Shown here piece by piece: positions 2,500 through 32,610 of a stretch of DNA of 64,000 nucleotides. The first letter of the stretch is position 1, and every line of letters begins with the position of its first letter. The DNA is from Owenia fusiformis (Eukaryota > Annelida > Polychaeta > Sabellida > Oweniidae). The position numbers and the translations under genes were made by a program. The notes beneath the pieces were generated by a model that saw nothing but the letters and a program-made list of their open reading frames with translations, searched no databases and was not told the origin of the DNA. The stretch is from contig CAIIXF020000010.1 in NCBI GenBank assembly GCA_903813345.2, positions 13,335,181 to 13,399,180 on the forward strand, given 5' to 3'.

Positions 2500-2663
2500 A
2501 GCTTGTTTTGGAAGAGTACTTACAGTTTTTATTTGCCACCTATCGTAAAATCTGGTGGTTTGTCTTACATAAATCCAGTCTGCTGGTAGGCCACCGATCC
2601 TCTGAGGGTAAGGCCCATACAAATCCCAACTTAAATAAAGAGGCATGAACATTCCATTTTATT

Positions 2664-12210: not shown

Positions 12211-12610
12211 AGCAATGGAAATATAAGTCTGTCAAACCTACAAAATAAATAATCAAAAGACCACAGAGTAAAATAGTTCACGAAAAAATATTCATATTTT
12301 TGGTTTAAAACGTTTGTACATCTAATACAAATTAGCTTTATTTGCAATGGACTCTTGTTATTTAGGGATTTTCAGCTAGGATTATTTTTTCTGATAATAT
12401 GTCAAAAAAACATTTGTTAGCAAACAACATGCAATCAAAAAAAAACGTTTGCATCTGAAATATGAAGTTTTACTGCACTGTGGCATCCTTGCTGCAAGGG
12501 TATTTTAAAAGTAATTTAAGCATAAATGAAGTCCTTTGAAGAAGGATGGCACTGTGGTCATTTGATTGTTTATTTTTTAGGTTTGACAGACTTGTATTTT
12601 ACTGCCTTGG
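12211..12610. repeat. imperfect inverted repeat
   Basis: About 55 bp at 12211-12266 reappears inverted at 12552-12610; the shared core is GTTTGACAGACTT near a TGTGGTC end. The spacer is about 285 bp of AT-rich sequence. It is probably a degraded foldback element. Confidence 0.5.
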
Positions 12611-12750
12611 ACTGTAAAATATGTCTCATATACAAATATATGTTATTTAGAGAGTATCCTGAAGAAAAAGAAAACATTCATGGCAAAGGCGCGTTACTTG
12701 AAACATTGATCAACTCACCTTTTGTATCATATTTCGCTTCTGCAGGCGGT

Positions 12751-12825
12751 GTTGGTGGGGGCGTCTTTGTCGGAGGTGGGGGCGTCTTTGTCGGAGGTGG
12801 GGGCGTCTTTGTCGGAGGCGCAGTC
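12751..12825 (+). repeat. short minisatellite, 21-bp unit, three copies
   Basis: Three copies of GGTGGGGGCGTCTTTGTCGG, with one extra base per unit. The tract is strikingly G-rich against the AT-rich surroundings. It is open in two frames, but repeat purity explains that better than coding. Confidence 0.7.
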
Positions 12826-13174
12826 AGATGCGTCAGAGGCCCCCTTGGGACTAGACAAATATATCAAATATTGTTTGGATGTTGATGAAGTGATTAAAGT
12901 TCATACTGAAGTGGTTAAATGCCCATATGATATTGTTTACTCAACCCTCATTTAAACTCAATTAATTGCTTCCATTCACTCATAAAGATAACACATTGTG
13001 TGTGCAATATGTGGCCTGTTGTGGACTTATAATACTCAGGGTGAGCCAAAAAAGGTAACAAAAACAAATTCTAATAAATCAGTCATCAAGCACGGGTTCA
13101 AAATCACATTTAAGGGGATTGTACCTTGTTCTTCATTCTATCAAGTTCCATGAATTAAGGAATAAATAATGATA

Positions 13175-13432
13175 GGCCATTCAATATGGTGAAATTCAGC
13201 ACGATTTGGACAGAATGTCGTACTGACGTTCTGTCCAACGGAGGGGGGATGTTAGACATTGTTTCTTTTCATGTTAGATCATGGTTTTGGGATAGATAGG
13301 GTCTACTTTTCTTATGACAGATTTACACTTACAGTTTGCTTTTCTTGTTGGGTTTCTTTAAAGTTTTCAGTCACCCTTCCCTTTGGCATTTGCGCTTATA
13401 TATTCGTGCAGAATTCACCATATTGAATGGCC
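13175..13432. mobile_element. MITE-like element, 258 bp
   Basis: The ends GGCCATTCAATATGGTGAA and its near complement form inverted repeats of about 26 bp. The interior has no open frame. Only one copy is in the window, so mobility is inferred from structure alone. Confidence 0.5.
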
Positions 13433-13513
13433 TGTTATTATATGAGTGATATATGGATTTCAGTGCTCTGATTGAGACAAGAAAAAATTATAGGAGAGGC
13501 GGGTAGAGCAATA

Positions 13514-13722
13514 GAACTAGAATAAGAGAACATGTACATGTAGCTAGAGACGCCTTAGGAATCAACCCAGACAAGTCTGTAATCGCTCAGCATTCAATTA
13601 ATGAAGCACATAAGATAAACTGGGATTACAAAATCATCGACTCAGAATCCAAGATTAAGGAAGCTACCCATATTCACAAAATCGAACCTGGATTTAACAG
13701 AGACGTATTTCCCTGCTTGGGG
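13514..13722 (+). mobile_element. Penelope-like retroelement fragment, GIY-YIG endonuclease tail
   Basis: About 70 codons read with the endonuclease tail of Penelope-like elements: an RxREH start, then a serine/asparagine-rich linker, AHxINWDYKI, IKEATHIHK and FNRDV. These match the family pattern EH...GH.I.W......KEA.HI......NRD from memory. Only this 3' scrap remains; the reverse transcriptase is absent, so it is an old, 5'-truncated copy. Confidence 0.7.
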
Positions 13723-13844
13723 TTGCTAGGTCAAAGATCAAGTCAAGGTCAAATCTACCAGTTTCCCGCCAAATTCAGACATCTTGAGAAAGGCAAACAG
13801 CTATTGTTGAAAGCTCGATAATTCTATTAAAGTGTGCGCCTGAC

Positions 13845-14017
13845 CCGGTGTAAAAGGGTAGGAGGTCCCATCAAATTATGGTCCTACTCTCCATTGATTT
13901 ATATGGTGACCTAAATACAACTCTTTTCCTAATTATCTTATACGCAATCAGGGCCAGTAAGGGCCGTTAAGAAAGGGGACCATAATCCCTGGTGGACCAT
14001 CATTTCTTTCACACCGG
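13845..14017. mobile_element. MITE family D, copy 1 (173 bp)
   Basis: The ends are CCGGTGTAAAA and TTTCACACCGG. A second copy of exactly the same length lies at 37668-37840 with the same interior, including a shared GGGCCAGTAAGGGCCGTTAA block. It is non-coding and non-autonomous. Confidence 0.75.
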
Positions 14018-15127
14018 CTACGTATAGCACAGAGTTTATACTGGCGGATTAGACTAGTTCATTTTTTATATGTGTGTGAAAGCTTTCTCTTATTTGCGTT
14101 TTTTCGTTTAGTACGGTTTTGTTATAATTGCCGAGGTCATATAACCGGGATAAAACAATGATTATCGTTGACTGCCCACACACAAAACATACGTTGAGTG
14201 AACAGTGTTATTACAAACAACAGGCTTTAGAATACAAAGCGTAGTGTGATAATAAGCTGCACACTACCACTGCTGCATGTACATATTACTAATTTACCAG
14301 GGCTCCCAAAGAGTGGATAGGGAGGTTGTGTTTGTCACTTTTAAATTTTACATTTCAAAATTGTCATTTTACATGTCATAATTTGTTGGTTTCATTCGTT
14401 TAGCCAATCAAAACATTGTAAAACAATAAATTGTCTGTTACGTACAATCAATTTTGTTAAGTTTTGATTAGTTGTCAGAATAAAGTTACGTTCATCTGAA
14501 TCCATGTATGAAAACAAAAATCCTATTTTCACTTCAAAATACTTCAGTGAGATGAAGGCTCGGAATTGTCACATGCAATAACTTATTGTCGTATTCGTTA
14601 TTTTATCTTCTCGATAGTAGCATTTAGTCGCACATTTGATGCTAGGTCACCTTGTCGCGTACCTCTTGGTGAACCCCACATTTATGTGTGCACTCATGGA
14701 AGTAAATTCCCCGGTGTAGCCGAGAGCCACAAACTTTTCAACAGGTTCGAAATGACCAATTTCTCTCATATATACTCTAAATATTTTATTATTTAGCACC
14801 TTCAAAGTATTGCTAATAACCATATGTAATTTCAATAAGGAAACTTATCTGGCTACATATAAATTCAATATCAACACTAGCTGTTCTCTCAACACGTCCT
14901 GGCTTACCTTGTGGTGACAAACCCTGGGTTTTCGCTATTTATAGTTTATCAACACCTGGACGCATGCGCATTTTATACTTTATCGGGCACTTTAAGGTTA
15001 TTGAATTGAGGAATTTTGCTCTACATTGTGATTATATTCTTTTTTGAATGTCATTTCGGTACACAATTTAAAAAGACTTTGAAAATCGTGAGCAATAATT
15101 AAATCCATGGGCTTTCATTTGACAGAT
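14018..15127. other. gene-free stretch
   Basis: AT-rich sequence with small open frames that match nothing I recognise. It contains the promoter-like site pair at 14934-14970 described separately. Confidence 0.4.
14934..14970 (-). promoter_or_regulatory. promoter-like site pair (NRF1-like plus TATA)
   Basis: Reading the minus strand, an NRF1-like TGCGCATGCG (14961-14970) is followed 18 bp later by TATAAATAGC (14934-14943). A GTAAGC donor-like sequence follows at about 14906. No coding exon was found downstream, so this may be a chance pairing or the start of a non-coding transcript. Confidence 0.25.
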
Positions 15128-15598
15128 CACTGGTGATCCACTTGATAACGCTGGTTACTGAAACGATTCGATTCGGTAACAAAATGTCGGAACATCGAAG
15201 GTACGATTTTTCTTTTTTCCTTATTTCACATGCTGTAGGCAGAATTCCCACGACATTTTTAACACAAACGTGTATCAGTCAGTACCATATGTTTAAGAAA
15301 ATGTACATATTTGCGAACAAATAGAAACGGTTTTCGAAAAACAGTTAAGATCTGCACTTTTAACCCAAACCGTTTATGTAACTTAAGTGAAGAATTAAAT
15401 CGACGATTCTGTTGTCTTCTGGGCTATTTTTTCGCAAACATATATATTTTATAAACCATATAATACTGATATACGTTTGTGAGAAAAAACGTCGTGAAGA
15501 TTCTGCCTACAACACGTGAAATAAGGAAAAAAGAAAAATCGTACTTTTGACGTTCCGACATTTTGTTACAACCAGCGTAATCGAGTGGATCACCAGTG
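15128..15598. mobile_element. foldback MITE family B, copy 2
   Basis: Same ends and palindromic interior as the copy at 2664. Flanking AGAT on both sides is consistent with a slightly decayed 5-bp target duplication. It sits just past the last defensin-like exon found (15666), on its 3' side, and may hide or replace a terminal exon. Confidence 0.85.
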
Positions 15599-15665
15599 AG
15601 ATAAAAAAATATATTTTCAAACTTGGAGTCTTTCTACAATTTGTTATTTGAGAAAAAATACTTAC

Positions 15666-15788
15666 CGCAGCAGTAAGGCTTCGGGGGCTTCTTTCCGTTC
15701 GGGCATTTAAATGTATCATCGTATTCTTCTCCATGTTTGCAAGCTTTGTTCTCCCGGCAAATTCCGTTGTCTGGTTCACACAACTTGA
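15666..15788 (-). CDS. defensin-like gene exon 5: domain 4
   Basis: Young duplicate of exon 4 with the same cysteine spacing. Its replacements make it slightly basic (8 K/R against 7 D/E by count). It ends in a strong GTAAGT donor, implying a further exon to the left that I could not find before the foldback element at 15128-15598. Confidence 0.75.
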
Positions 15789-18700
15789 CTAAAACATAAA
15801 ATAATGCATATTTTCCTATAGCAGAACATAAAGCAGAGCTAGGACTGCGTTTTTGAACTGCCAGGGGCACAAGTAAATTGCATATAATATTTAGTTTATA
15901 TAGTATTTAGGTATCAAGAACAATAAGCCCCTGTGTTGCAAATTACATGCTCACACGTTTTCAGCAAGAACAGCGCATTCAAGCGCACTTACACCGCTAA
16001 TAGACGAGTTTCCATAGCTTTTAAGTCTCCCTAATTCTCGTTTTTATGAGATGTTAACCTCTAACAACTAATTTTTCTTTCTTTTTAATAGCATATTTGA
16101 ATTCAGTGAAAAGTTTTCCACAATAATAACTTTGATTTATACAGTTATGTCATTCAAATCATTTTTCATGACCTTTTAAAAAACGTGGGCCCAATCTCCA
16201 TTAATGCAATGCTAAGATTCTTAGAACCCTGGTTTATTCGTTTGACAACCCAAAATTTCATGATTAATCACAAAAGGTACTTTGACAGCAGGATTGATTG
16301 ATTGCAGGGTCATGACATTTGAGATTCAGACAGATCCGACCAACAGTTTTTAATAAATCATTAAATTGAGTGACTATCGCAAGTTTATAACATGGCGGAC
16401 GGCTATGGCAGTCAGGCGACTGCGACATCTATAATGTCAGTTTATTCAGCTATTTAGAAACTACAGTGTATACTATGACAATGTGTAATTTGCACTGCTG
16501 GGCTTATTGTTCTTTTCAGTGATGCCTGGGATGAAAACTCATTTCAAAATCCTCTGAAATATACTTGTTACTTCGCAAGAATATGTTCAATATCAGCTAT
16601 GGACCCTCATCTAAAACAACTTTGGTAATCGTGAGCAATAATTGAACAGATATATACAATATTTTCAAACGTGTAGTCTTTCTCAAAGGGAGGAGGAAAA
16701 GTAGTGCAACAGATTTCGGACAGTACAGTCATATGTTGGATTTTGGCTATTTTCTGAGGATTTAAACAGGTGCATATGTAAGGCCAATGCATCCTCCAGG
16801 AAAAGCACTCCTAGAGATGATTAAATAATTTCGACTTTGAGACAAATTCAAATTCAAACTTACCGCAGCAGTAATGCTTCGGGGGCTTCTTTCCGTTCGG
16901 GCATTTAAATGTATCATCGTATTCTTCTCCATGTTTGCAGTCTTTGTTCTCCCGGCAAATTCCGTTGTCTGGTTCACACATCTCGACTAGAACATAAAAT
17001 AATGCATATTTTCATATAGCAGAACATCAAACAGAGCGTATATTTTCTTGTAGTCTTGCTTCGAGTACTTAACTCCAGCTACGCAGCTCACCTGTTGTGA
17101 GTTTATCGTGTGTATTTAATGAGTTTTAAAAATCTGAACTTTGTCATGATATGTTATTTCTGATATCAGTTTATTCAGTTTAAATATGTAAGAACAGATT
17201 TTACATAAAATTGATATTATATTGTATTATGTTGTACTGTATTGTAGAATTTTTCTTCCTTCATAATCAAACATTACAATATATTAACAAATGGTTATTA
17301 AATTGAAAAATGTATATGATATAGCATCAATAATTATTGCTAATTTTGCTATAACTTTTGTTTTCTTGCTTTTTTCTTCATGAAACCTTCACAACTAAAC
17401 GAACATAAATATTCACAACTAATGGAACATATCTGACCTTATTCCATCAAAATTTGCTGACAATTAACTAAGTATGGACAAAGTTACGATTGGTGACTAT
17501 GGTAACCATTGCCATGGGTATGGGGGCGCAACCTTAAGGATTTCTATGATAAATCATTGTTATACATCAAATAAACACTACTTGATGAATAAAAACTGTT
17601 GATACGGATTGTACTTGCATATTCGGATTGTACTTATATATAATTGTTCAGCAGATTAGTCTATGTCACCTGAGTGAGTCATAATGACATCACTAATGTT
17701 GCAAAATATTTTTGATATGCTAAAACATTGAAGTGGCCCATTAAATATGGCATATCAATATATTATATAATTTTTGCATTGACAATCTTTTTGAAATATA
17801 TGGAGAAATATTTGATGATTAAAATACTTAATACTTAAAATGATCAATAAACTTTTTCTGAAAAATGGCGGGAAATTTGAATATTTGATAAATGAAATGC
17901 TCACAATTTTTTGCAAATTTTTTTTCAAGTATATTTAAAGTCATGATAAATAGGAAATAAATTATAAAAAATATTTTCAAACTTTACATGGGGACTTTAA
18001 CAAGATACTATTTTAAATCAACCAATCTTTCCTTTGTACAATTACAATATTGAGAGACCTAAACACGTTGTGTATGTATCGTTTTGTTCCAATGAGGTTC
18101 GGAAAGATGCCTCGTTTCATTCCAAACATATGATACCAAGAACAAAACAGTGTCTGATGTGTTTTCTAAAACAATATAGAGAAAAGTTTATATACTTTTT
18201 TCAAATTAAAATGTTTGCATTCAAAAGATGATCATTAAATTGACGATGTTTACAATTTTCAGAATTTTTTAATGACCATATTTGGCGAGCAATACCTCAT
18301 TGGTATATTCCGTATTTTACGTATTTTACACTCGAAGATAGAGACAGAAACCCCTCCTTGGAGGAGCCCTGTTTTCTTTTATGTGCACAGGTACACAGAC
18401 ATACAGGTACACACCACAGCCTTTTATACGAGTCGTGAACCACTCAGTCAAACACCCAGAATTACATAACGCACAAACAAACTTGTCTGAACCGGGAATC
18501 GAACCCTGGGCCAAGCGATATTGGTAACCTTGACTCTCTCTGCCACTGGGCCATAGCGGGTGTTCAATTCAGTTCGCTATATCGATACCAATCCTTTTTT
18601 GTATGATTAAAAAACTTACCGCAGCAGTAGGGTTTCCTTATGCTTCGGCACATGAATGAATTACTATATTCTTCTCCATATTTAGGACAATCTTCTTTTT

Positions 18701-21700
18701 TCTCCCGGCAAATTCCGTTATCTGGTTCACACTCTGGAACATTGAAATAATGCACATTTCCCTAGAACAGAACATCAAGTAAAGCATATATTTTCTGGGA
18801 GGGGCTAATCTTGCTTCGCACAAGTATAAAAATCGTGTGTATTCATGCTTTTTCCGCTTATCAATCAAACGGGTACTTTTAATGGAGTAAAAGGAGTTTT
18901 GAAATCTTAACTTTGTCATGAAGTGTTTTATTTCTGATATAAGTGTATATAGAAAATTTGTAAGAACAGATTTTACATGAAATTAAAATTCTTAATATTG
19001 TATTGTATTGTGTTGTGTTGTGTTGCATTTTAGGACTTTTATTCCTTCATACAGGGTGTTCAAAAAAAACGCAACCCAAAGAAATTGCTATATCTTGAAA
19101 AATACTTGTTCAATTATGTTCATTTTTTCAGGAAAGGAAGAAGAGACTGTGTATGTATAGCTCCTGTAGTTGGTTAGTTGTAAAACATGATGCATTGGAC
19201 ACCTGCTCAAGAGGCAGTTGTACTAGGAGAATACGAAAAACCCAGTCAGGGCTGACTGCAACCGCAAAAAAACTAAATTACTTCCTAGCCATAGTGTTTT
19301 GGCTCTTCAAATTTGGCACAAATCATCTTCATTCACTGTATGGTAAATCTACAAAGTGAAATTAAAATCACTTTAGGGACTTGACAGTTATGGTCGAAAT
19401 GCTTTCAAATCGCAGTCAAACGCCCTGGTTCCAGCAGACTTCAGAAGGTATTTTGACCATGACTGTAAAGTCCCTGAAGGGATTTTGATGAAACTCCACA
19501 AATTCACCACACATTGAATGAGGATAATTTGTGCCAAATCTGAAGTGTCAAAACACTATGGCTAGAAAGTTGTTAGGTTTTATTCCTGTGGCAGTCACCT
19601 CTGACTGCGTTTTTCGTATTCTCTTAGTACAACTGTCTTTTGGGCAGGTGTCCAATGCATCATAATTTACAACTAACCATTTACAGGAGCTATACATACA
19701 CAATATCTTCTTTCTTTTCCTAAAAAATGAACATAATTGAATTAGTATTTTCCAAGATATAGTGATTTTCAATTCGTGTTTTTCGTATTTTCCTTGTACA
19801 ACTGCCTTTTGAGCAGGTGTACAAGACATCATGTTTTACAACTAACAAACAACAGGAGCTATACATACACAGTCTCTTCTTTCTTTCCTGAAAATATGAA
19901 CACAATTGAATTACAATTTTCCAAGATATAGTGATTTTCCATTCACGTTTTTCGTATTTTGCTAGTACAACTGTCTTTTGAGCAAGTGTCCAAGATATCA
20001 TGTTTTACAACTAACTAACAACAGGAACTATACATACACAGTCTCTTCTTTCTTTCCTGAAAATATGAACACAATTGAATTACAATTTTCCAAGATATAG
20101 TGATTTTCCATTCACGTTTTTCGTATTTTGCTAGTACAACTGTCTTTTGAGCAAGTGTCCAAGATATCATGTTTTACAACTAACTAACAACAGGAACTAT
20201 ACATACACAGTCTCTTCTTTCTTTCCTGAAAATATGAACACAATTGGATTAGAATTTTCCAGGATATAGCGATTTCTTTGGGTTGCGTTTTTTGTATTAC
20301 ATACAATATGTATTGTATTAATTGTATTGTATTGTGTTCTGTTCTGTTGTGTTGTGTTGTGTTGTAGGACTTTTATTCCTTCACATTCCTTCAAAATACA
20401 AACAATATATATATACATAAACGAATATGTATTTTTATAATTGTTAGTAAATTGACACCAAATAGTTCCACCGCAGCATGCACCTAATAATTTACTATAC
20501 TTCCATCAACTCCATTTAGGAGTTAGGTCTTGGATTAAACTTACTTCTGACGCAGCACCTTCGAATCGACCTAGGGCATCCTTTTACTTTGACCGCTACT
20601 TCACTCGTATTACATTTTTTCTTGCAAGTTCCATCTGGAGGGTCATCGGTACAGGCTAAAACATCAAATTACTCAATTTTCCCATGGCATATACTCAAGA
20701 AAAACTTTTTTGGTAGTCTTGCTTCTGTTACTTTTGACCCCTCCCTTCTATACACTATATATTTCATGTGTACGAACAAAGTGATATGGAATTCATTGTA
20801 AAATAATATGTACAGGGTGATCATTAAGTTCTGGGAATTGGTCTGCCATTTCAAGATCTCTCAACCATTTGAGTTGAAATTTTCAGCAGGTGTACATTGT
20901 ATAATTATGAATTGACAAGCAATGTTTCATATACATATCACATCTACAATTTATTTTATTGTAATTACAAAAAAAGTAAAAGTGGTCTGCGGGTCAGCAA
21001 ATTTTGACTGATGTTAATCTGATAATTTCCTGCCAAAACATATTCATCTTGCCTAGATGGTTGCTTCAAACTACTTGTACTAGAGGCAGAACAGTACTCT
21101 TGAAGTCATTTATTCAGAAGTATTCTTCATTGCTGAGAGGATCATTTCATTTATAATTGTTTCCATTAGCCTGGACGCACATGCGTTGTTGACAAACCTA
21201 GTCCATAAAGATGTGTTCCAGTCCTCCCTTTTGTATCCCTTGAAGATTTGCCAAGGCCGTTGAAATCAGTCCCTTATCAGAATCAAACTTATGACCTCTC
21301 ATATAATGCTTTAGCACCCAAAATGTAGTGAAGCCTAATGCTTCATCTGGTGAATATTGTCTGGTGAATATGGGGCAGTAATAACTTGTGTGAACCCTAA
21401 TTCTTCAAGAGTAGTATGGGCAGCTTGAGTAATGGGAAGGAGCTTAGTCATACTGGAAAACTCCCCGCTATTTTGAGTCGTAATTCTGACTTTGGGATCC
21501 TGATGAATGATACGAAAATAGAGCAAAGTACACTCTTATATAACAATACAGATGTTACTTTAGAAACTGAAGTTAGGAGTATTTGAAAATATGAAAAATC
21601 ACAGAAATATGTCTACCAAATAGGTATTTATTAACCATACTTTTGGATCAAGCAAAATTAGAATTCATTTTTATTTAACTTGACCCGCTACGCCATTTGT

Positions 21701-24012
21701 CATGTTGCTATAGTAACAATTATTATCCATTGTGACATCAGATGACAATGAGACTGTTCTATCCAACCCAAAATTACATTCCCCATTTACCTTGAAAATT
21801 TCAAGTAAATTGGTTGAAAAATAATGAAATGACAGATAAATTCCCAGAACTTAGTGATCACCCTGTACATGTAGTTCATTCATGGAACGAAGCGTGAAAC
21901 TTTCCACAAATTATCAGGACACATTTTCCTACGATTTGAGAGAACAAATGTTTCTAAACTATATTTGACCTTTTTTAAACTAAAGACCTTTTAGATCTTT
22001 TTACCAGGTCAAATCACAAATCTTAAGTTAAATTTGAATTTCTGAGAACTTGTAGATGATTTTTAAAAAAATTAAGCCAATTTCAAGCAAGTTGAAAAAA
22101 CACATTTTTGACTTTTTTGACCTTGAGAAGGTCAATGATTGTCAAATCTCAAATCTATAGTCAGATTTGAACTTCTGAGAACCCGTAGATGATTTTGAAG
22201 AAAACATTTAATCAATTTGAAGCAAGTTGAAAAATACATTTTGACCTTTTTTAATCTTTTTGAATTTGAGAAGGCCATTGAAGGTCAAATCTAAAGTCAG
22301 ATTTGAATTTCTGAGAAGTTGTAGATGATTTAGAAAAATGATTGGTCAAAAAAAGTTGAAAAAGTTGAAAAAATACCTTTCTGACCTGTTTTACCTTGAG
22401 CAGGTCATTGAAGGTCAAATCTCAAATCTATAGCCAGATTTGAACTTCTGAGAACTCGTACATGATTTTGAAAAAAAATTTAATCAATCTGAAGCAAGTT
22501 GAAAAATACCTTTTTGACATTTTTAACTCTTTTGACCTTCTAAAGGTCATTGAAGGTCAAATCTTAAACTTGAACTTCTGAAAACGTATAGATGATTTTG
22601 AAAAAAGTTGAAGTCAGTCTAAACAGTATTTGTTAAGTTATTGGAAGTTTTAAGAATTTGTTACAGACACAACCCGCCAATCATAAACCTTTTTTTACCT
22701 TGAAAAGGTCATTAAATCAGATTTGAACTTCTGAAAACTTGTACATGATTTTGATAAAAAATGAAGTTAGTCTAAACAGTATTTGAATTAAGTTATTGGA
22801 AGTTAAGAATTTGTTACAGACGCCAACCAAATTTGTTACAGACGCCAATCACTAACCGCCAACCACCAACCGCCGTCACAAAAAAACGGAGACCATAACA
22901 AAATATCACCACTTATTGGTGGTGGCATAAAAAAGTTATAGGCCACCTTAAATAATAGGGAACGTAGAAAGATTTACGCTTCGTTGTATGAATGAACTAT
23001 TGCCCTGTTTTTCACAATTAACGTAAAGGAGCTGTTTTCAGTTTTCATTCAAAGACTTAGTTTTGTCGTGCACAATTATTTCATTTATCCTGTATACGTA
23101 AAGTATTAACTTTGGCATGTTTGGTGCAATGACTTATAAAGTTCTAGATATCAATAAATCATAATTTATTGAGTTATTTTAAGGAAAACTGTTTGAAGCT
23201 GAAACACATTCTATTAGATATTATATCAAAAGTTATTTCTTTCATTTATTAGTCTCAACACTGGAGACTTATGAAGTGGACATTTGCATTTTTGGGAATG
23301 TTGAAAAGAAGGTGAGATCTCAGATCTCTTTCTCGCTCGTATTAATATTTGTCAAAATCTTGAATTATGCAATCAATGGGAGATATACCTTTACATATAT
23401 TTAACATTGAAGTGGTATTTCTTCAAACTTTTTCGTGTGAGCAATATAATAAAATACAAGAAAAAACACACATGTAATGCACCATTCAAAAGTTTGCGTG
23501 AGACCCCCCACGCGGGCATGGTAGGGAATTTGACAAAAAAATTAGCCTGTCTAATTCCTTACCCCGGGGCCAAATAAATGTGTCAATTTCCCTACCCTTG
23601 AATCAATAAATCTGGTCAAATATTCGCAATTCCCGGGTCCTTCCACCATTTGAAATCTATTTTTAAACATCAGATTTCCTGATGCTAGTAAATGTTGAGG
23701 GATACACGTGCAGTACTTTGTTAATGTCAATATTTTAATTAGAGACACCATATATGGTCATAAATTCTTCGCGGATAGTCCACTACACATGCTACAATTA
23801 GTTTATAAATGAAAAGTTCGCTTAAGATTAAACCTAATGAAATCAAAAAGATCGCAAAATATTGCAAAGATGAGTCAATAAACTAATTTTAGATATAAAC
23901 CAACCATCACTTAATCGAAGCACATGTGATACTTACGTGGGTACTGTCCACTTGCAAAATTCTGAATGACGGCAAAAGCAACGATGCAAACTAACAAAGT
24001 TAGAGAATTCAT
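15666..24012 (-). CDS. secreted protein with four beta-defensin-like domains (five exons found, 3' end unresolved)
   Basis: Minus-strand gene. Exon 1 (23937-24012) encodes a signal peptide; exons 2-5 (20545-20655, 18620-18733, 16864-16986, 15666-15788) each encode one six-cysteine domain ending in CC. Every border is GT-AG and every intron is phase 1, so the exons join in one open frame. Cysteine spacings are C-x8-C-x3-C-x11-C-x6-CC, C-x6-C-x6-C-x12-C-x7-CC and, in the last two, C-x6-C-x5-C-x11-C-x10-CC. They fit the beta-defensin plan, including a glycine two residues before the second cysteine. Beta-defensins act on microbial membranes outside the cell; that role is inferred from the fold only. 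Exon 5 ends in a good donor but no terminal exon was found. Reading into its intron gives a stop after about 11 codons (near 15634), so retention could end the protein. Confidence 0.75.
16864..16986 (-). CDS. defensin-like gene exon 4: domain 3
   Basis: Forty full codons, spacing C-x6-C-x5-C-x11-C-x10-CC. Nearly the same as exon 5: five base differences in 123, all changing the amino acid (K/E, L/M, A/D, P/H). It is the most acidic domain (9 D/E against 7 K/R by count). Flanking intron sequence is also shared with exon 5, so the duplication took intron with it. Confidence 0.8.
17681..18001. mobile_element. partial copy of the 1420-2499 element (right end)
   Basis: Shares GACATCACTAATGTT, the TGAAGTGGCCCATTAAATAT block and the right end GGGGACTTTAA with the element at 1420-2499. 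Only about 320 bp is kept. It sits in the intron between domains 2 and 3 of the defensin-like gene. Confidence 0.6.
18340..18563 (-). mobile_element. tRNA-derived SINE
   Basis: The minus strand carries a pol III A box, TGGCCCAGTGG (18543-18553), and a B box, GGTTCGATTCC (18495-18505), in the spacing of a tRNA head. A non-tRNA body rich in TGTGTACCTGT follows. A true tRNA is unlikely because the acceptor arms do not pair and the sequence runs on. It lies in the intron between domains 2 and 3 of the defensin-like gene. Confidence 0.7.
18620..18733 (-). CDS. defensin-like gene exon 3: domain 2
   Basis: Encodes a domain starting CEPDNGIC and ending CRSIRKPYCC, spacing C-x6-C-x6-C-x12-C-x7-CC. 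It shares CEPDNGICRE with domains 3 and 4 and RSIR with domain 1, placing it between them. The acceptor is TTCCAG; the donor GTAAGTTTT. Confidence 0.8.
19052..20294. mobile_element. mariner/Tc1-type element remnant with 169-bp tandem expansion
   Basis: Starts after TA with CAGGGTGTTCAAAAAAAACG, and GTTGCGTTTTTT marks the opposite end; the last few bases of that end are lost. On the right, four units of about 169 bp begin near 19685, 19854, 20023 and 20192. Each contains a short piece resembling the transposase N-terminus (WTPAQ- or WTLAQK-like) on the minus strand. The single left copy is in the opposite orientation. It sits in the intron between domains 1 and 2 of the defensin-like gene. Confidence 0.6.
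20545..20655 (-). CDS. defensin-like gene exon 2: domain 1
   Basis: Encodes CTDDPPDGTCKKKC, an 11-residue loop and CPRSIRRCCVR. Spacing is C-x8-C-x3-C-x11-C-x6-CC. This domain is the most basic of the four (9 K/R against 4 D/E by count) and closest in spacing to vertebrate beta-defensins. It is also the most diverged from the other three. Confidence 0.8.
20813..21865 (-). mobile_element. mariner-type DNA transposon, degraded
   Basis: Flanked by TA on both sides, with inverted ends CAGGGTGATCATTAAGTTCT and AGAACTTAGTGATCACCCTG. On the minus strand, pieces of a transposase are readable: AHTTLEELGF followed by APYSPD, the position of the mariner PYSPDL motif, and a C-terminal GHKFDSDKGLI-like stretch. 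The first catalytic region was not found. It lies in intron 1 of the defensin-like gene. Confidence 0.8.
21960..22830. repeat. degenerate tandem repeat, unit about 135 bp, six copies
   Basis: Units centre on GTAGATGATTTT at about 22052, 22185, 22321, 22458, 22588 and 22741. Each contains GAAGGTCAAATCT and TTTGAACTTCTGAGAA. They have diverged considerably. Non-coding; within intron 1 of the defensin-like gene, directly beside the mariner copy. Confidence 0.65.
22831..23936. other. rest of defensin-like gene intron 1
   Basis: AT-rich intron without recognised repeats except short ACCGCC/ACCAACCGCC direct repeats near 22855-22875. No extra six-cysteine exon was found here. Confidence 0.4.
23937..24012 (-). 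CDS. defensin-like gene exon 1: signal peptide
   Basis: The ATG at 24012 opens 25 codons beginning MNSLTLLVCIVAFAV, a short polar start and a hydrophobic core, then ASG as a likely cleavage site, followed by QYP. The exon ends after one base of the next codon at GTAAGT. A TATA box lies about 80 bp upstream, supporting this ATG as the true start. Confidence 0.8.
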
Positions 24013-24090
24013 CTTTGTTTAATGTATTGTCCAGTGACAGTGATTACTGAACGCGCACCGTGAATTTCTGCTCATTGAACCAGAGTTTGG

Positions 24091-24097
24091 TTTTATA
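24091..24097 (-). promoter_or_regulatory. TATA box of the defensin-like gene
   Basis: Reads TATAAAAC on the minus strand. The expected start of transcription is some 25-30 bp downstream, leaving a 5' leader of about 50 bases before the ATG at 24012. Confidence 0.6.
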
Positions 24098-25185
24098 CTG
24101 CGATCATCGCCATCGTAATGATCAGATCTTTTCAATTTGATTTGAAATAGGTCTATTTTGAGAGTGAAAGAATCTCAATAAAACTGACTGATATTCTTTG
24201 AGATGCTTTAGAGATGTACCAATTTTATTTCATGTCTATAAAACGTAGATTGTTTGAGGCAATAAAACTATCTGTAAAACAGGATATAAGAACAATCAAT
24301 AAAAGTGAAACATTGTTTTAAAATTCCATTTAATTTCCAACTTTCAATGGGGGTTTATGAATGTTTCACTCAAACATTAAAATTTAATGTGTTAAGGCTT
24401 TTATTACAAAAATGTGTGCGATATCACAAGAACTACGAATACCGAATGCAGTAAACGACTATAGTCAATGCAATGAATACGTGCGATGGAGATCGTACCC
24501 ACCACAATGCGTTTGTGTAGGAAAGAACACAATCAGAGAGGGGTCAATCAAACAACCATTTGCAGAATCCAGAGAGTTGAGGCGCTCCCTAAAAAGTATC
24601 GATGAGCTAGTGGGCGTGGTTATAACATATGATACGGAGCTGACAATGGTCGAATAACTTTTCTTTCAAACCCCCACCCCTGTGATCTCGGGCTTAAATA
24701 GAATATTAAATACTAGCAATCTTGAGACTGAGAGAAAATTAAACATTAGCAGGAGCAGGATGGTATTGAACGGAAACTTACCGAGTACATGTAAAGGACA
24801 TGATGACATTCGAGACCACATTATATCCATGCCAATATTGAAATTATTAACTGCTGGGGATCAACTAGAAATGAAGACATCATGTCTTGGTTTCAACATG
24901 GCTGGTCTTCGACTTCCGGTAGAATAATTTGATAAGAATTTAAGTTTCCTCGATTTTATCACTTTACGCATAAAATTTCAACTAAATAATTGACAAGGTA
25001 CGGACTGCGTAGATTCGAAATATGATTACACCCAAGAAATACAGTAATACAGTAATTGTCATAATTTTGTACCTTTATTTTACATCACTGTACATATAAA
25101 TTGTATCTACATTTTATTATGGGCAATAAAGACAATACAATACAACACAATTGTTTGGATAATTTCCTCGCTCCAAGACACTATT
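24098..25185. other. upstream flank of the defensin-like gene
   Basis: Two open frames of 81 codons on the plus strand (24412 and 24682) match no family I recognise and lack splice support. A GGGCAATAAAGACAATACAA stretch near 25120 looks like the 3' tail of a retroposon, but no body was identified. Confidence 0.35.
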
Positions 25186-25440
25186 TTTTTTTTAAATTGA
25201 AAATAAAGTTCTGAAAAAAAATTTGAAAAAAAATTGAAAATTAATCTGAAAAAATTTGAAAATAAAATTATAGTAATAAAAAAAATGAAAGAAAATTGGA
25301 AAAAATTGAAAAAATATTTGGAAAAAGTTTGAAAAGTTCCAAGGTTATATGCTCAGTTAAAATGAGTTACATTTTTTCATGCAATCATTTTATAAAACTG
25401 AGGTCACAGAAAATAAAATGAAAAAAAATAGAATAGAATT
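25186..25440. repeat. low-complexity GAAAAA-rich tract
   Basis: Irregular repetition of TTGAAAAAAA and TGAAAATT words. No coding potential. Confidence 0.6.
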
Positions 25441-25508
25441 AGAAAACAACAACTTTAGGTCAAATTATTTGAAGTCCATACAAAAATAGCGACCATCGGA
25501 TAAATATG

Positions 25509-25649
25509 ATATCCTATGATTTTTTCGGCTATTATTTTTATCCACTCTTGGATATCGCCGATCTCCACTCATTCGCTGCGCTCATTCGTGGAGATGAGCG
25601 ATATCCACTCATGGATAAAAATGGTATCCCTCAAAAATCATAGGATATC
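25509..25649. repeat. palindromic foldback element, about 140 bp
   Basis: The ends GATATCCTATGATTTTT and its complement enclose a second imperfect palindrome centred on CATTCGCTGCGCTCATTCG. The compact nested shape fits a small foldback element or a decayed hairpin. Confidence 0.6.
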
Positions 25650-26219
25650 CTCGATGTATACTGTATCTAATATCTATCGTAATAGAAATATGTCTTTGTT
25701 GCAAGTTAAATATGTCTTCGTATCTTGCTACAAAACGGAAAACTGTCTTCGTTTCTAATCGAAGGAACTGATTGTTAAATATCGATTCAATTTACACATC
25801 ATTTATTTCTGAGATGTACACATAATCATATTCAAAACCGGAACCTACGCACTATATACGGGCCAAATATCAAGTTGAAATTTAAAGGATAAAGGTGATA
25901 AAACCTAGAAACTAAAAATTCTTCTACCGAAAGTTTGGCCATGCTGAAACGAATACATCCAGTTGAGCCCTCGTGGCTCTGTTGAGAGATAATTTAACTG
26001 AGTAAGATCACCCGTAACCCATTGGCAACTTGCACACACCATTCACCAATTCTATTCAACAGAATATGCTGGAATCATGGGAGATATCTCAGGCGCTGAC
26101 TGAAGCGCACTTAAGAAAGGTTTTAAAGGCAAGGAACATTCGGAGTGCATTTTGGCAGTTATGGGAGCATAGTGCAGTGATCACAAGTGTGCATTCTGAG
26201 ACGACGCTCTAATGATGTC

Positions 26220-26800
26220 GAAAGCTCTCTTGGGCAATGAACAAAAATCACTCAGTCAACGATAAGACCATACAAGAGTAATTGGGGATGATAAGAGCAC
26301 ACTCAGACTGGGATGAAAGCGCAATCGGAGGAACGACATTCTGTTATTGATAAGAGTATTTTCAGGCAGTAAAGAAACCACACTCAGGTTGAAATGAAAA
26401 TAAACTCGGACAGTGATGTGAGTACTCTCAGCAATGATGAGAGCACACTCAAGCAAGCATGAAAACACAGTCGAGCAATTTTGAGAGTACGCTTGGTGAT
26501 GATGAGAGCACATTATTCAGGTAAGGATGAAAGCACAGTCCGGCAATGATGAGAGCACACGCGGACAATGACGAGAGCACACTCAAACAATGGAATATGG
26601 TATAAAAGCACGGTGTGGTGCAACTAGTTTAATGGCGAGGGCACGTTTCGGCATTGATGATAGCACAGTAGGACAAGAATAAGTAACTTTTGGTGGATGT
26701 CTAGAGAACATCTGTACAATGATGAGAGTACAATCAAGCAATAACGAAAGCGTACTCAAGTTATTTAAAAGAGAACATTCAGGCAACGTTTAAGAACACG
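26220..26800. repeat. degenerate short tandem repeat, unit about 24 bp
   Basis: Loose repetition of AATGATGAGAGCACACTC. The same word family builds the large satellite at 28316-32610, so this may be the older, less homogenised form. Non-coding. Confidence 0.65.
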
Positions 26801-28315
26801 CTGTCTTATAGAATATTTATAGACATAGGGAAATGATTTGATTTCAAAATATACTCTGAAGCCTAAATGTCCACGTTTAATTTTAAGACTCCCATATTTC
26901 AGGCATTATGATTAACCATGACATCTCATTTCTTCTCAGCCCTGAGTGAAACAGAAAGATGCTATGAGTATCAGAATGTATTTCGACTTCGGATTCACTC
27001 ATCGACCATCAATGTCACATTGCAACTGTACGACTGATGTTGTTTCTACAACTGCTTGTTGTTTCATGACACTGACACTATGAGGTGCCGTTGCTGGTCA
27101 CGTATACACATTCAGACACTCAGGATGCACAATACGTGTTGTAATTGATCACGTTCATAGCATCGTGTTAAGTTGTTGTTACATTTCAAAGCGCGAAAAT
27201 GATTATTCGCTGTGTCATTGTATTGATATAATGTTTTATTGATATCAAAGCGAACTTGCGTTCATTATTTAATGTTTAACCTTTTGATAAATACTCCATC
27301 AGACAAGCGATTATGAGACAATGGTCCAGCATATTCGATTTACCGACGCCTTGTTTTATAGCATTTTTATCTATCGAAAAATGTCATTACAAACAATTGG
27401 AATTTATATTTTTATTGAATATTTTTATTTCTGGAATTCATAAAGAACATTCATCAAAAGTACATAGGTAAAGCAGTAATAGTAAAAATTGTTAAGTTTT
27501 TTGACTAAATTGTAGATTTAGCAGTGGCAGGCAGAGGGTAATATTTAATCATTCTATTTAACCCATTTTATGGTCCAACAGTACAATTATGGTATGTGTT
27601 CGGGAACAATGGTGATTGAACAAGACATCGAGTCGAGAGGAAACGCTAGTTCTCTGTATATCAAACCATGGAATTTCAAGAGATATCTTGAAAACCCATG
27701 ATCATTAACAGTTATAATTTCGTAATCAAAATTTAATACTGTCTACATGACATTAACAATCGTTAAGATCTTCAAATACTGAACTATAGAATACCGTTCC
27801 TCGTATGAAATGAAATGTACCATGGCCATTTGTTTGCTTGATTTCATTGTATTCAAAAAATGAATTGAGATTTTTCAAATATCCTTTAGTCTGGACAGGA
27901 AAATTAACTGGACAGTGAAATTTTTTGTAAATGATTGTAGTCTTAAGACTAATTAAAGTTTCCTTGATTTACTTTCTCAACTCGACATTTTAGAACATTC
28001 ATTTTCCATACTTTCAAAAATGAAAAAAATGTAATTTTGATGGTTCAGAAAGTTTGGTGATTTTTATGAAAAGCCTGGTATTCCAGATATATAAGCAACG
28101 GTGTATTGTGCCATTAAGTGTCGAAACGTGGAATCGTACATACAACTCATTTCGACCACACAATATTTTCAATTCTGTATTTGACTTTTATCCGTCGACA
28201 TTGGTCATGTACTGTATTTTATAGGCTCGTAATTTGAAGAGGATAATGACTTACACATCAAAGCAAACTTTCTTTTTTATTACAGGCACATCTGAGAGTC
28301 TAACCCCGGTTGACC
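26801..28315. other. unique spacer between the two repeat arrays
   Basis: About 1.5 kb of AT-rich sequence with no repeat unit and no recognised exon. It separates the degenerate array from the homogeneous satellite. Confidence 0.4.
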
Positions 28316-31300
28316 CGAGGACAAAAATTAAAGCACACTCGAGCAATGGCAAGATCACACTCGCAGAATGAGAACACACTCGAGTAATAATGAGCAACAT
28401 ACAAGGACAATGATATTAGCACACTTGAGCGTTGATGACAGCAAAACTCGTTGAATGGTGAGAGCACACTCGAGTAATAATGAGCGCTCGAGCAACATAC
28501 CTGGACAATGATATTAGCACACTTGAGCGGTGATAACAGCTAAACTCGTTGAATGGTGAGAACAAACTCGAGTAATAATGAGCGCACGAGCAACATACCT
28601 GGGCAATGATATTAGCACACTTGAGCCGTGGTGACAGCAAAACTCGTTGAATGATGGAAATACACTCTAATAATCAGCGCCCGGGTGACATACCTAGACA
28701 ATGATATTAGCACACTTGGGCGGTGATAACAGCTAAACTCGTTGAATGGTGAGAACACACTCGAGTAATAATCAGCGCTCGAGCAACATACCTGGACAAT
28801 GATATTAGCACACTTGAGCTGTGGTGACAGCAAAATTCGTTGAATGATGGGAATGCACTCGAGTAATAATCAGCGCTCGGGTGACATACCTAGATAATGA
28901 TATTAGCACACTTGAGCGGTGATGACAGCAAAACTCGTTGAATGGTGAGAACACACTCGATTAATAATCAGCGCTCGGGTGACATACCTGGACAATGATA
29001 TTAGCACACTTGAGCCGTGGTGACAGCAAAACTCGTTGAATGATGGGAATACACTCGAGTAATAATCAGCGCTCGGGTGACATACCTAAACAATGATATT
29101 AGCACACTTGAGCGGTGATGACAGCAAAACTCGTTGAATGGTGGGAACACACTCGAGTAATAATCAGCGCTCGGGTGACATACCTGGACAATGATATTAG
29201 CACACTTGAGCCGTGGTAACAGCAAAACTCGTTGAATGATGGGAATACACTCGAGTAATAATCAGCGCTCGAGTGACATACCTAGACAATGGTATTAGCA
29301 CACTTGAGCGGTGATGACAGCAAAACTCGTTGAATGATGAAAACACACTCGAGTAATAATCAGCGCTCGGGTGACATACCTGGACAATGATATTAGCACA
29401 AACTGAGCGGTGATGACAGCAAAACTCGTTAAATGGCGAGAACACACTCGAGTAATAATCAGCGCTCGGGTGACATACCTGGACAATGATATTAGCACAC
29501 TTGAGCGGTGATGACAGCAAAACTCGTTGAATGGTGAGAACACACTCGAGTAATAATCAACGCTCGGGTGACATACCTGCACAATGATATTAGCACACTT
29601 AAGCGGTGATGACACCAAAACTTGTTGAATGGTGGGAATACACTCGAGTAATAATCAGCGCTCGGGTGACATACCTGGAGAATAATATTAGCTCACTTGA
29701 GCGGTGATGACAGCAAAACTCGTTGAATGGTGGGAATACACTCGAGGAATAATCAACGCTCGGTTGACATACCTGGACAATGATATTAACACACTTGAGC
29801 GGTGATGACAGCAAAACTCGTTGAATGGTGGTGAGAATACACTCGAGTAATAATCAGCGCTCGGGTGACATACCTAGACAATGATATTAGCACACTTGAG
29901 CGGTGATGACCGCAAAACTCGTTGAATGGTGAGAACACACTCGAGTAATAATCAGCGCTCGGGTGACATACCTAGACAATGACATTATCACACTTGAGCC
30001 GTGATGACAGCAAAACTCGTTAAATGATGGGAATACACTCGAGTAATAATGAGCGCTCGAGCAACATTCCTGGACAATGATATTAGCACACTTGAGCGGT
30101 GAGAACAGCAAAACCCGTTGAGAACACACTCGAGTTATTATCAGCGCTCAGGTGACATACCTGGAGAATGATATTAGCACACTTGAGCGGTGATGACAGG
30201 AAAAGTCGTTGAATGGTGAGAACACACTCGAGTCATAATCAGCGCTTGGGTAACATACCTGGATAAGGATATTAGCACACTTGAGCAGTGGTGATAGAAA
30301 AACTCGATGAATAATGAGAATGCACTCGAGTAATAATCAGCGCTCGAGTAACATACCTAGACAATGATATTAGCACACTTGAGCAGTGGTGACAGAAAAA
30401 CTCGATGAATAATGGGAATACACACGCGCAATAATCAGCGCTCGAGTAACATACCTAGACAATGATATTAGCACACGTGAGCGGTGATGACAGCAAAACT
30501 CGTTGAATGGTGAGAACACACTCGAGTAATAATCAACGCTCGGGTGACATACCTGGACAATGATATTAGCACACTTGAGCGGTGATGACAGCAAAACTCG
30601 TTGAATGGTTGGAATACACTCGAGTAATAATCAACACTCGGGTGACATACCTGGTCAATGATATTAGCACATTTGAGCGGTGATGACAGCAAAACTCGTT
30701 GAATGGTGAAAACACACTCGAGTAATAATCAGCGCTCGGGTTACATACCTGAACAATGATATTAGCACACTTGAGCGGTTATGACAGCAAAACTCGTTGA
30801 ATGGTGAGAACACACTCGAGTAATAATCAGCGCTCTGGTGACATACCTGGACAATGATATTAGCACACTTGAGACGTGATGACAGCAAAACTCGTTGAAT
30901 GATGGGAATACACTCGAGTAATAATGAGCGCTCGAGCAACATACCTGGACAATGATATTAGCACACTTGAGCGGTGATGACAGCAAAACTCGTTGAAAGG
31001 TGAGAACACACTCGAGTAATAATCAGAGCTCGGGTGACATACCTGTTCAATGATATTAGCACACTTGAACGGCGATGACAGCAAAACTCGTTGAATGGTG
31101 AGAACACACTCGAGTAATAATCAGAGCTCGGGTGACATATCTGTTCAATGATATTAGCACACTTGAGCGGCGATGACAGCAAAACTCGTTGAATGATGAG
31201 AACACACTCGAGTAATAATCAGCGCTCGGGTGACATACCTGGACAATGATATTAGCACACTTGAGCGGTGATGACAGCAAAACTCGTCAAATGGTGAGAA

Positions 31301-32610
31301 CACACTCGAGTAATAATCAGTGCTCGGGTGACATACCTTGACAATGATATTAGCACACTTGAGCGGTGATGACAGCAAAACTCGTTGAATGGTGAGAGCA
31401 CACTCGAGTAATAATCAGCGCTCGGGTGACATACCTGGACAAGGATAATAGCACACTTGAGCCGTGGTGACAGCAAAACTCGTTGAATGATGGGAATACA
31501 CTCGAGTAATAATCAGCGCTCGAGTGACATACCCAGACAATGATATTAGCACACTTGAGCGGTGATGACAGCAAAACTCGATGAATGGTGAGAACACACT
31601 CGAGTAATAATCAGCGATCGGGTGACATACCTGGACAATGATATTAGCACACTTGAGTGGTGATGACAGCAAAACTCGTTGAATGGTGAGAACACACTCG
31701 AGTAATAATCAGCGCTCGGGTGACATACCTGGACAATGATATTAGCACACTTGAGTGGTGATGACAGCAAAACTCGTTGAATGGTGAGAACACACTCGAG
31801 TAATAATCAGCGCTCGGGTGACATACCTAGACAATGATATTAGCACACTTGAGCTGTGGTGACAGCAAAACTCATTGAATGATGGGAATATCCTCGAGTA
31901 ACAATGAGAGCTTGAGCAACATACCTGAACAATGATATGAGCACACTTGAGCGGTGATGACAGCAAAACTCGTTGAATGGTGAGAACGCACTCGAGTAAT
32001 GATCAGCGCTCGGGTGACATACCTGGACAATGATATTAGCACACTTGAGCCGTGGTGACAGAAAAACTCGTTGGATGATTGGAATACACTCGAGTATTAT
32101 TCAGCGCTCGAGTGACATACCTGGACAATGATATTAGCACACTTGAGCGGTGATGATAGCAAAACTCGTTGAATGGTGAGAACACACTCGAGTCATAATC
32201 AGCGCTCGGGTGACATACCTGGACAATGATATTAGCACACTTGAGTGGTGATGACAGCAAAACTCGTTGAATGGTGAGAACACACTCGAGTAATAATCAG
32301 AGCTCGGGTGACATACCTGGACAATGATATTAGCACACTTAAGCGGTGATGACAGCAAAACTCGTTGAATGGTGAGAACACACTCGAGTAATAATCAGCG
32401 CTCGAGTGACATACCTAGACAGTGATATTAGCACACTTGAGCGGTGATGACAACAAAACTCGTTGAATGGTGAGAACACACTCGAGTAATAATGGCTGCT
32501 CGAGCAACATACCTGGACAATGATATTAGCACACTTGAGCCGTGATGATAGCAAAGTCGTGGAATGTTGAGAACAAACTCGAATAATAATTAGTACTCGA
32601 GCAACGATGA
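28316..32610. repeat. satellite array, 98-bp unit, about 43-44 copies
   Basis: Head-to-tail units of 98 bp share CACACTTGAG, GACAGCAAAACTCGTTGAAT, CACACTCGAGTAATAATCAG and GACATACCTGGACAATGATA in that order. Each unit is made of about four related sub-units of 22-30 bp. In the left part, two unit types (GGTGATGACAG with GGTGAGAA; CGTGGTGACAG with GATGGGAA) alternate, giving a 196-bp dimer. The many minus-strand open frames of 74 codons are by-products: 98 is not a multiple of three, so each unit moves to another frame. The edges grade into irregular sub-units. Confidence 0.95.

What the first reader, a model, noticed from the sequence alone, without database searches (positions are those of the whole stretch)
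15666..24012. A poly-defensin: one signal peptide followed by four exon-encoded six-cysteine beta-defensin-like domains
Five minus-strand exons join by phase-1 introns into a secreted chain of four domains, each ending in CC with beta-defensin-like cysteine spacing and the G-x-C feature before the second cysteine. Classical beta-defensins are single-domain; a tandem four-domain precursor without obvious long linkers is unusual and could act as a multivalent protein or be cut into several peptides. Symmetric phase-1 exons let domains be added by exon duplication without breaking the frame.
Basis: partly seen in the sequence, partly recalled or inferred. Interest (0 to 1): 0.92.

Follow-up and report, generated by a model that had tools for sequence, protein, structure and literature searches.

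The report
Four-domain defensin-like gene, invertebrate
An animal genome that is probably not a vertebrate's carries a gene that joins four copies of a small defence-peptide-like module behind one secretion signal, an arrangement described so far mainly in some lizards; the gene is probably real, but its end, its expression and its activity are untested.

Summary
In detail: five minus-strand exons (24012-15666), GT-AG, phase 1, join in frame into a signal peptide and four six-cysteine domains ending in CC, far above chance, with coding constraint on domains 2-4. The model is incomplete: exon 5 ends in a perfect donor and no terminal exon was identified. Domain 1 is probably a trans-defensin (beta-defensin-type) fold: sub-threshold Pfam hit and a moderate model whose nine PDB matches are all defensins, none significant. 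Domains 2-4 match no defensin family; there the case rests on cysteine frame, exon phase and descent. New here: the intron ends before the domain exons are homologous, so domain 1 and domains 2-4 share an ancestor, and domain 1's exon has diverged more than its intron flank. Only domain 1 is clearly cationic. The CCT3 neighbour argues against a vertebrate. Polydefensins of two to four domains are described in birds and lizards, a two-domain one in a marine invertebrate. Verdict: new variant of a known kind.

The parts
24092..24097 (-). TATA box (TATAAA), about 80 nt upstream of the ATG; a TCAGT initiator-like word lies at 24050-24046
   Evidence: consensus scan of 1200 nt upstream; function inferred
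23937..24012 (-). Exon 1: ATG and signal peptide (cleavage after ASG judged by eye), then QYP; phase-1 donor gtaagt
   Evidence: first of 10 local and of 42 window-wide candidate ATG exons by hydropathy; no signal-peptide program was run
20545..20655 (-). Exon 2: domain 1, cysteine spacing 8-3-11-6, net charge +6
   Evidence: Pfam Defensin_beta_2 18.6 bits, E 0.0025, cut-off 22.2; model and Foldseek
18620..18733 (-). Exon 3: domain 2, spacing 6-6-12-7, net charge 0
   Evidence: same spacing as VkBD12, 13, 14
16864..16986 (-). Exon 4: domain 3, spacing 6-5-11-10, net charge -2
15666..15788 (-). Exon 5: domain 4, spacing 6-5-11-10, net charge +1; ends in a gtaagt donor, so probably not the last exon
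   Evidence: read-through would stop at 15634
15660..15839 (-). Recent duplication unit around exon 5, 95% identical over 180 bp to 16858-17037
   Evidence: blastn self-comparison
16858..17037 (-). Recent duplication unit around exon 4, partner of 15660-15839
16856..17265 (-). Older duplication unit of exon 4 with its upstream intron, 68.9% identical to 18612-19051
18612..19051 (-). Older duplication unit of exon 3 with its upstream intron
17051..17062 (-). Shared intron word GAAGCAAGACTA upstream of exon 4
   Evidence: three places in the window match with at most 1 mismatch, upstream of exons 2, 3 and 4; flank homology
18806..18817 (-). Same intron word (1 mismatch) upstream of exon 3
20714..20725 (-). 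Same intron word upstream of exon 2; lies in the homologous intron end of domain 1
12300..13560 (-). Region with two uncertain candidate terminal exons (first exon base 13467 and 12390); supported by consensus only
   Evidence: mechanical scan

Best explanation
This is a protein-coding gene, of an animal that is probably not a vertebrate, for a secreted host-defence protein of four tandem trans-defensin (beta-defensin-type) domains. It arose by repeated duplication of one symmetric phase-1 exon together with its upstream intron end. Shown: the exon structure, frame and splice sites; homology of domains 2-4; homology of the intron end before domain 1 with those before domains 3 and 4; coding constraint on domains 2-4. 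Inferred: the signal peptide is removed and the chain is secreted; domain 1, strongly cationic and the only one with defensin family and fold support, is the membrane- or microbe-binding effector; domains 2-4, near neutral and held by three-residue linkers, stay attached and add size, stability or further binding sites. A single cut at the basic pair between domains 1 and 2 could free domain 1. At least one more, short, terminal exon probably exists that I could not place.
For: Exons, phases, splice sites, frame. Chance control. dN/dS 0.159/0.626 (D2-D3) and 0.174/0.493 (D2-D4). Domain 1: Defensin_beta_2 E 0.0025, while 0 of 20 cysteine-fixed shuffles matched that family; three-strand model, pLDDT 72.7, pTM 0.39; 9 of 9 PDB matches at E up to 10 are defensins, among them human beta-defensin 4 (1.6 A), gallin (1.4 A) and the first 40 residues of AvBD11. 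A phase-1 intron just before the cysteine region is given as shared by big defensins and beta-defensins (PMC7203481 passages). Intron ends: e2/e4 score 36, reached by 0 of 3000 random and 0 of 772 acceptor-like stretches; e2/e5 score 33, reached by 3 of 3000 and 0 of 772. Charges. [quoted passage not shown]
Against: Domain 1's Pfam score is below the curated cut-off; domains 2-4 have no defensin match. The Komodo beta-defensin profile gives 3.5, 1.9, 5.5 and 0.5 bits for D1-D4, reached by 83, 73, 14 and 71 of 500 cysteine-fixed and 11, 48, 6 and 77 of 500 full shuffles; hhalign probability 2% global, 25% local. Best pairwise scores are reached by 114, 35, 27 and 109 of 300 cysteine-fixed shuffles. 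Domain 1 against D2, D3, D4 as proteins is not beyond the cysteine frame (130, 124, 353 of 2000); exon 2's DNA and its downstream flank show no clear similarity to the other exons, and its upstream flank none to exon 3 (309 of 3000). Foldseek E-values are 1.9 or worse, and three of five models were under pLDDT 50; the domain 4 model failed, pLDDT 47. No sequence match in the PDB. PMC9138766 calls the role of AvBD11's second domain elusive. No transcript, no terminal exon, no own genome, no activity data.
Confidence: 0.6

Rival explanations
1. The gene is real and the fold is trans-defensin, but the protein is not antimicrobial: it works as an enzyme inhibitor, a structural or egg/mucus protein, or a secreted toxin-like product, as happened to other trans-defensins and to the lizard four-motif proteins.
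For: Domains 2-4 are near neutral (0, -2, +1). Beta-defensin-like sea anemone peptides include an alpha-amylase inhibitor (title and start of the abstract of PMC6835510). The four-motif lizard relatives are described as venom proteins (title in the reference list of PMC9138766).
Against: Domain 1 is strongly cationic (+6) and its nine PDB fold matches are defensins. I saw no feature of the window that points to a particular non-defence role.
Confidence: 0.2
2. The four exons are alternative cassettes rather than one chain: exon 1 is spliced to one or a few domain exons and then to a common terminal exon, so that one locus makes several one- or two-domain defensins.
For: All domain exons are 1-1 symmetric with the same GTAAGT donor, so every subset keeps the frame; domain charges differ.
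Against: Constitutive joining is the simpler reading. I did not search for signals of alternative splicing, so this is untested rather than contradicted.
Confidence: 0.1
3. Domains 2-4 are an unrelated six-cysteine module that happens to end in CC; only domain 1, or none, is a defensin.
For: No defensin match for these domains, failed model of domain 4, weak profile scores, no protein similarity to domain 1 beyond the cysteines.
Against: The intron end before exon 2 is homologous to those before exons 4 and 5 up to the acceptor, so these exons share an ancestor; same intron phase, GxC and CC; domain 2 has exactly the spacing of three Komodo beta-defensins.
Confidence: 0.12
4. A decayed or never-transcribed gene remnant.
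For: No terminal exon found; repeats fill much of the introns.
Against: All five exons open, all splice sites intact, TATA box in place, dN below dS.
Confidence: 0.05

Closest known systems
Gila monster helofensins (four defensin motifs in one protein)
   Same: Four tandem beta-defensin motifs thought to come from internal duplication in one gene, as described in PMC9138766 (passage)
   Different: Lizard protein, and described as venom; the window's CCT3 neighbour argues against a vertebrate. Sequences and exon layout of helofensins were not compared here
Komodo dragon VkBD39 (three domains), VkBD7, VkBD34 and VkBD43 (two domains)
   Same: Several six-cysteine domains in one chain with short linkers (PMC6716921)
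   Different: Two or three domains, vertebrate; commonest spacing in the 47 rows compared is 6-4-9-5 (18 of 47); no domain similarity clearly beyond the cysteine frame
Avian beta-defensin 11 (AvBD11)
   Same: Unlike domains on one chain, most activities in the N-terminal one (PMC9138766 passage); its first 40 residues are one of nine PDB matches of domain 1
   Different: Two domains only; its two domains are said to have different ancestors (title of PMC9138766), here the domain exons share one
Double-beta-defensin of a marine invertebrate (Xiao et al. 2023, J Immunol)
   Same: Tandem beta-defensin-type domains outside vertebrates
   Different: Two domains by its title. I saw only the reference line in PMC11767717 and PMC12363182, not the paper
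Big defensins
   Same: Phase-1 intron before a six-cysteine trans-defensin domain (PMC7203481 passages)
   Different: They have a hydrophobic N-terminal domain, absent here: only QYPP lies between the inferred signal peptide and the first cysteine

Membership tests
beta-defensin / trans-defensin domain | Six cysteines in the order C-C-C-C-CC | tested here: met
   4 of 4 domain exons
beta-defensin / trans-defensin domain | Spacing C-X6-C-X(3-5)-C-X(8-10)-C-X6-CC as given in PMC6716921 | tested here: not met
   8-3-11-6, 6-6-12-7, 6-5-11-10, 6-5-11-10; the same paper reports wide variation, and D2's spacing occurs in 3 of the 47 Komodo rows compared
beta-defensin / trans-defensin domain | Profile match above the curated cut-off | tested here: not met
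   D1 18.6 bits against a cut-off of 22.2; D2-D4 no defensin match
beta-defensin / trans-defensin domain | Three-stranded beta fold | tested here: inconclusive
   D1: three strands, 9 of 9 PDB matches defensins but E 1.9 or worse; D4 model failed
beta-defensin / trans-defensin domain | Disulfides 1-5, 2-4, 3-6 | not testable with these tools
beta-defensin / trans-defensin domain | Phase-1 intron at the 5' end of the cysteine-rich region | tested here: met
   all four domain exons; criterion from PMC7203481
beta-defensin / trans-defensin domain | Net positive charge (typical) | tested here: inconclusive
   +6, 0, -2, +1
beta-defensin / trans-defensin domain | Antimicrobial activity | not testable with these tools
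   needs recombinant protein
polydefensin | Two or more defensin domains in one secreted chain | tested here: inconclusive
   open and in frame in the genome; no transcript; defensin status of D2-D4 rests on cysteine frame and exon descent
big defensin | Hydrophobic N-terminal domain before the cysteine domain | tested here: not met
   only QYPP between inferred signal peptide and first cysteine

The most novel reading that the evidence does not exclude
A four-domain polydefensin that arose outside the vertebrates, independently of the lizard ones, by repeated duplication of a symmetric phase-1 exon, with a division of labour in which the cationic first domain has evolved faster than its own intron flank (diversifying selection by microbes) while the neutral repeats are conserved, possibly in a phylum for which big defensins are reported absent; subsets of domains may be chosen by splicing.
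Probability: 0.2. Interest if true: 0.75.

Novelty: new variant of a known kind. Interest (0 to 1): 0.48.

Why it matters
Why tandem defensins arise in some lineages is called an open question in PMC9138766 (passages). A non-vertebrate four-domain case, with duplication steps still readable in the introns, would suggest that polydefensins are a repeated outcome of the phase-1 exon layout shared by big and beta-defensins, and gives a natural set of domains for testing what the extra copies add. The faster change of the domain 1 exon than of its intron flank is a testable sign of selection.

Tried and rejected
Further domain exons elsewhere in the window: none by loose pattern; tblastn with E up to 50 gave, besides the four exons and exon 1, only fragments with E 0.046 or worse. 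A terminal exon: a scan of 13 kb gave 25 candidates, none convincing (two shown). Read-through after exon 5 would give a stop at 15634; judged unlikely as the end because exons 1-4 carry the same donor. Immune-type promoter words: no kappa-B, ISRE, AP-1 or C/EBP-like match in 1200 nt upstream. Relatives in the viral and prokaryote collections: 15 and 26 pattern hits, none confirmed. PDB by sequence: none. Viral fold library: one match at E 9.5. Words of the domains in the paper library: none. A reptile or bird origin was considered because multi-domain defensins are best known there; rejected because two CCT3 exons are only 46 of 64 and 52 of 62 identical to PDB CCT gamma chains that I take to be mammalian (organisms are not printed; near identity among vertebrates is recalled). 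The phylum could not be determined; an echinoderm is a guess from memory. Excision into four separate peptides: disfavoured by the linkers. Domain 1 as an unrelated exon: rejected by the intron homology, although its exon DNA and downstream flank show no clear similarity (67, 929, 898 of 2000 and 744, 403, 1733 of 2000 controls reach the scores). The intron word by itself is not over-represented at two mismatches (7 matches, 5.18 expected). Exon against flank: the 82-nt flank was chosen because it aligns, which favours it; e2/e4 p 0.0003, e2/e3 p 0.004, e2/e5 p 0.06; e3/e4 no difference (p 0.57), and for e3/e5 (p 0.04) and e4/e5 the exon is the better kept part. With 400-nt flanks 2 of 1000 simulated stretches reach the e2/e4 and e2/e5 scores.
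Full report
What is there. On the minus strand, exon 1 (24012-23937) encodes a signal peptide, and exons 2-5 (20655-20545, 18733-18620, 16986-16864, 15788-15666) each encode one domain with six cysteines ending in CC. All five donors read GTAAGT, the acceptors end in TAG, CAG, TAG, TAG, exon 1 ends in phase 1 and the four domain exons are 1-1 symmetric, so the joined frame runs 182 residues without a stop. A TATA box lies about 80 nt upstream of the ATG. A loose six-cysteine pattern finds exactly these four places in the window, all four with a phase-1 splice frame; of 60 simulated windows 4 held one hit each and none had the splice frame. Exon 1 ranks first of 10 candidate ATG exons in 20656-40000 on its strand, and first of 42 in the window, by hydropathy.

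What is missing. Exon 5 ends in a perfect donor, so the chain probably goes on. A scan for acceptors followed by a short frame and stop gave 25 candidates and no convincing one. No genome of the source is held, and no transcripts were available.

How the gene grew. Exons 4 and 5 sit in 180-bp units that are 95% identical; exons 3 and 4 sit in units of about 440 bp that are 69% identical. Domains 2-4 are clearly homologous (0 of 2000 cysteine-fixed shuffles reach their pairwise scores), whereas domain 1 is not distinguishable from them as a protein beyond its cysteines (130, 124 and 353 of 2000). The introns tell more: the 110 nt before exon 2 align with those before exon 4 right up to the acceptor, score 36, reached by 0 of 3000 random and 0 of 772 acceptor-like stretches and 0 of 1000 simulated ones; against exon 5 the score is 33, reached by 3 of 3000 random, 0 of 772 acceptor-like and 0 of 1000 simulated stretches. 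With 400-nt flanks 2 of 1000 simulated stretches reach these scores. Against exon 3 the score is not significant (309 of 3000), though exon 3's flank is clearly related to exon 4's. Exon 2's own DNA and its downstream flank show no clear similarity to the others. The word GAAGCAAGACTA with at most one mismatch occurs at three places in the window, upstream of exons 2, 3 and 4. I conclude that the four domain exons come from one ancestral exon.

Selection. Between domains 2 and 3, dN 0.159 and dS 0.626; between 2 and 4, dN 0.174 and dS 0.493; between 3 and 4, dN 0.022 and dS 0.052 on three changes. This is coding constraint. Domain 1 differs: against exon 4, its intron flank keeps 58 of 82 aligned bases but its exon 49 of 111 (Fisher p 0.0003); against exon 3, 53 of 82 and 41 of 96 (p 0.004); against exon 5, 47 of 82 and 48 of 111 (p 0.06). 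This suggests that the domain 1 exon changed faster than the neighbouring intron, as under diversifying selection. Limits: the flank was picked because it aligns and may carry splicing constraint; e3/e4 shows no difference (61 of 74, 85 of 108), and in e3/e5 (48 of 74, 85 of 108) and e4/e5 (60 of 82, 118 of 123) the exon is the better kept part.

What the domains are. Pfam lists one defensin match, Defensin_beta_2 for domain 1 (E 0.0025, 18.6 bits, cut-off 22.2); the 182-residue chain and domains 2 and 4 match nothing, and domain 3 only a family of unknown function at E 0.14. None of 20 cysteine-fixed scrambles of domain 1 matched Defensin_beta_2; one matched two other families at E 0.32 and 2.3. 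A structure model of domain 1 reached pLDDT 72.7 with three strands (the five models ranged from 46 to 73), and all nine PDB matches with E up to 10 are defensins (five alpha, four beta-type), none significant by itself. The model of domain 4 failed. A profile from 47 Komodo domains (44 of 66 genes, chosen by eye) gave weak scores, reached by 83, 73, 14 and 71 of 500 cysteine-fixed shuffles for domains 1-4, so that test does not support membership beyond the cysteine frame. The spacing of domain 2, 6-6-12-7, is that of VkBD12, 13 and 14; the others are not in that set. The phase-1 intron directly before the cysteine region is the layout that PMC7203481 gives as shared by big defensins and beta-defensins (passages). 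I therefore call the protein trans-defensin-like, with fair confidence for domain 1 and by descent for the rest, and do not file it as a member of the beta-defensin family, since spacing and profile cut-off were tested and not met.

What host. Two CCT3 exons of the neighbouring minus-strand gene are identical at 46 of 64 and 52 of 62 residues to PDB CCT gamma chains that I take to be mammalian, too few for a vertebrate by what I recall of this protein's conservation. The phylum remains open.

How it most likely works. Net charges are +6, 0, -2 and +1. The linkers between CC and the next cysteine are VRK, VEM and VKL: short, with one basic pair, between domains 1 and 2. The best reading is a secreted defence protein whose first domain is the effector and whose other three stay attached. 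The avian AvBD11 offers a partial precedent: its N-terminal domain carries most activities and the antiviral one needs both, while the role of its C-terminal domain is called elusive (PMC9138766 passage). Rivals are a non-antimicrobial use of the same fold, and alternative use of the symmetric exons.

What is known. PMC9138766 (passages) describes polydefensins as rare in vertebrates, with two domains in birds, multiple-motif forms in lizards and four motifs in Gila monster helofensins. PMC6716921 (passages; section 8 part 1) reports three Komodo genes with two domains and one with three. A two-domain form from a marine invertebrate exists by its title (Xiao et al. 2023; reference line only). 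PMC7203481 states that big defensins are apparently absent from Ambulacraria and Urochordata (passages); the review PMC11767717 lists defensins in Arthropoda, Chordata, Cnidaria, Mollusca and Porifera (section 8). Eight searches of the held library showed no four-domain case outside reptiles among the rows listed (25 of 643, 1 of 1, 25 of 522, 0 of 0, 20 of 59, 11 of 11, 12 of 21, 20 of 20 papers); I saw those mostly as titles and abstract starts, and most subscription papers are not in that library.

Verdict. Interest 0.48.

Noticed in passing
window 42307-51556, minus strand: Gene for chaperonin subunit CCT3 (TCP-1 gamma): three ORFs match Pfam Cpn60_TCP1 (one of them below its cut-off) and the two searched match CCT gamma in the PDB; 350-bp tandem repeats lie within it at 46197-47155 and 49412-50692.
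   Followed up: partly
window 37174-37425, plus strand: An ORF with the start of a C-type lectin domain (Pfam Lectin_C, 23.9 bits); the rest of the gene was not traced.
   Followed up: no
window 28397-32590: A minisatellite of 98-bp units, about 43 copies, 89% matches, GC-richer than the rest of the window.
   Followed up: no
window 15127-15606, 2657-3186, 59175-59480: A long palindromic repeat just downstream of exon 5, with relatives at two other places in the window; looks like a fold-back or MITE-type element.
   Followed up: no
window 20808-21870: A stretch of about 1 kb in intron 1 with 78-bp inverted ends, 86% identical, perhaps a DNA transposon remnant.
   Followed up: no
window 19082-20275: Four tandem 169-bp units (92% matches) in intron 2 with an inverted copy of part of the unit at 19082-19241.
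   Followed up: no
window 18500-18580, minus strand: A stretch that by eye looks like the head of a tRNA-derived SINE (recalled); ARAGORN found no tRNA in the window.
   Followed up: no
window 13507-13821, plus strand: An ORF that by eye resembles the endonuclease end of a Penelope-like element (recalled); no Pfam match.
   Followed up: partly
window 13845-14015 and 37668-37838: A dispersed repeat of 171 bp at 93.6% identity.
   Followed up: no
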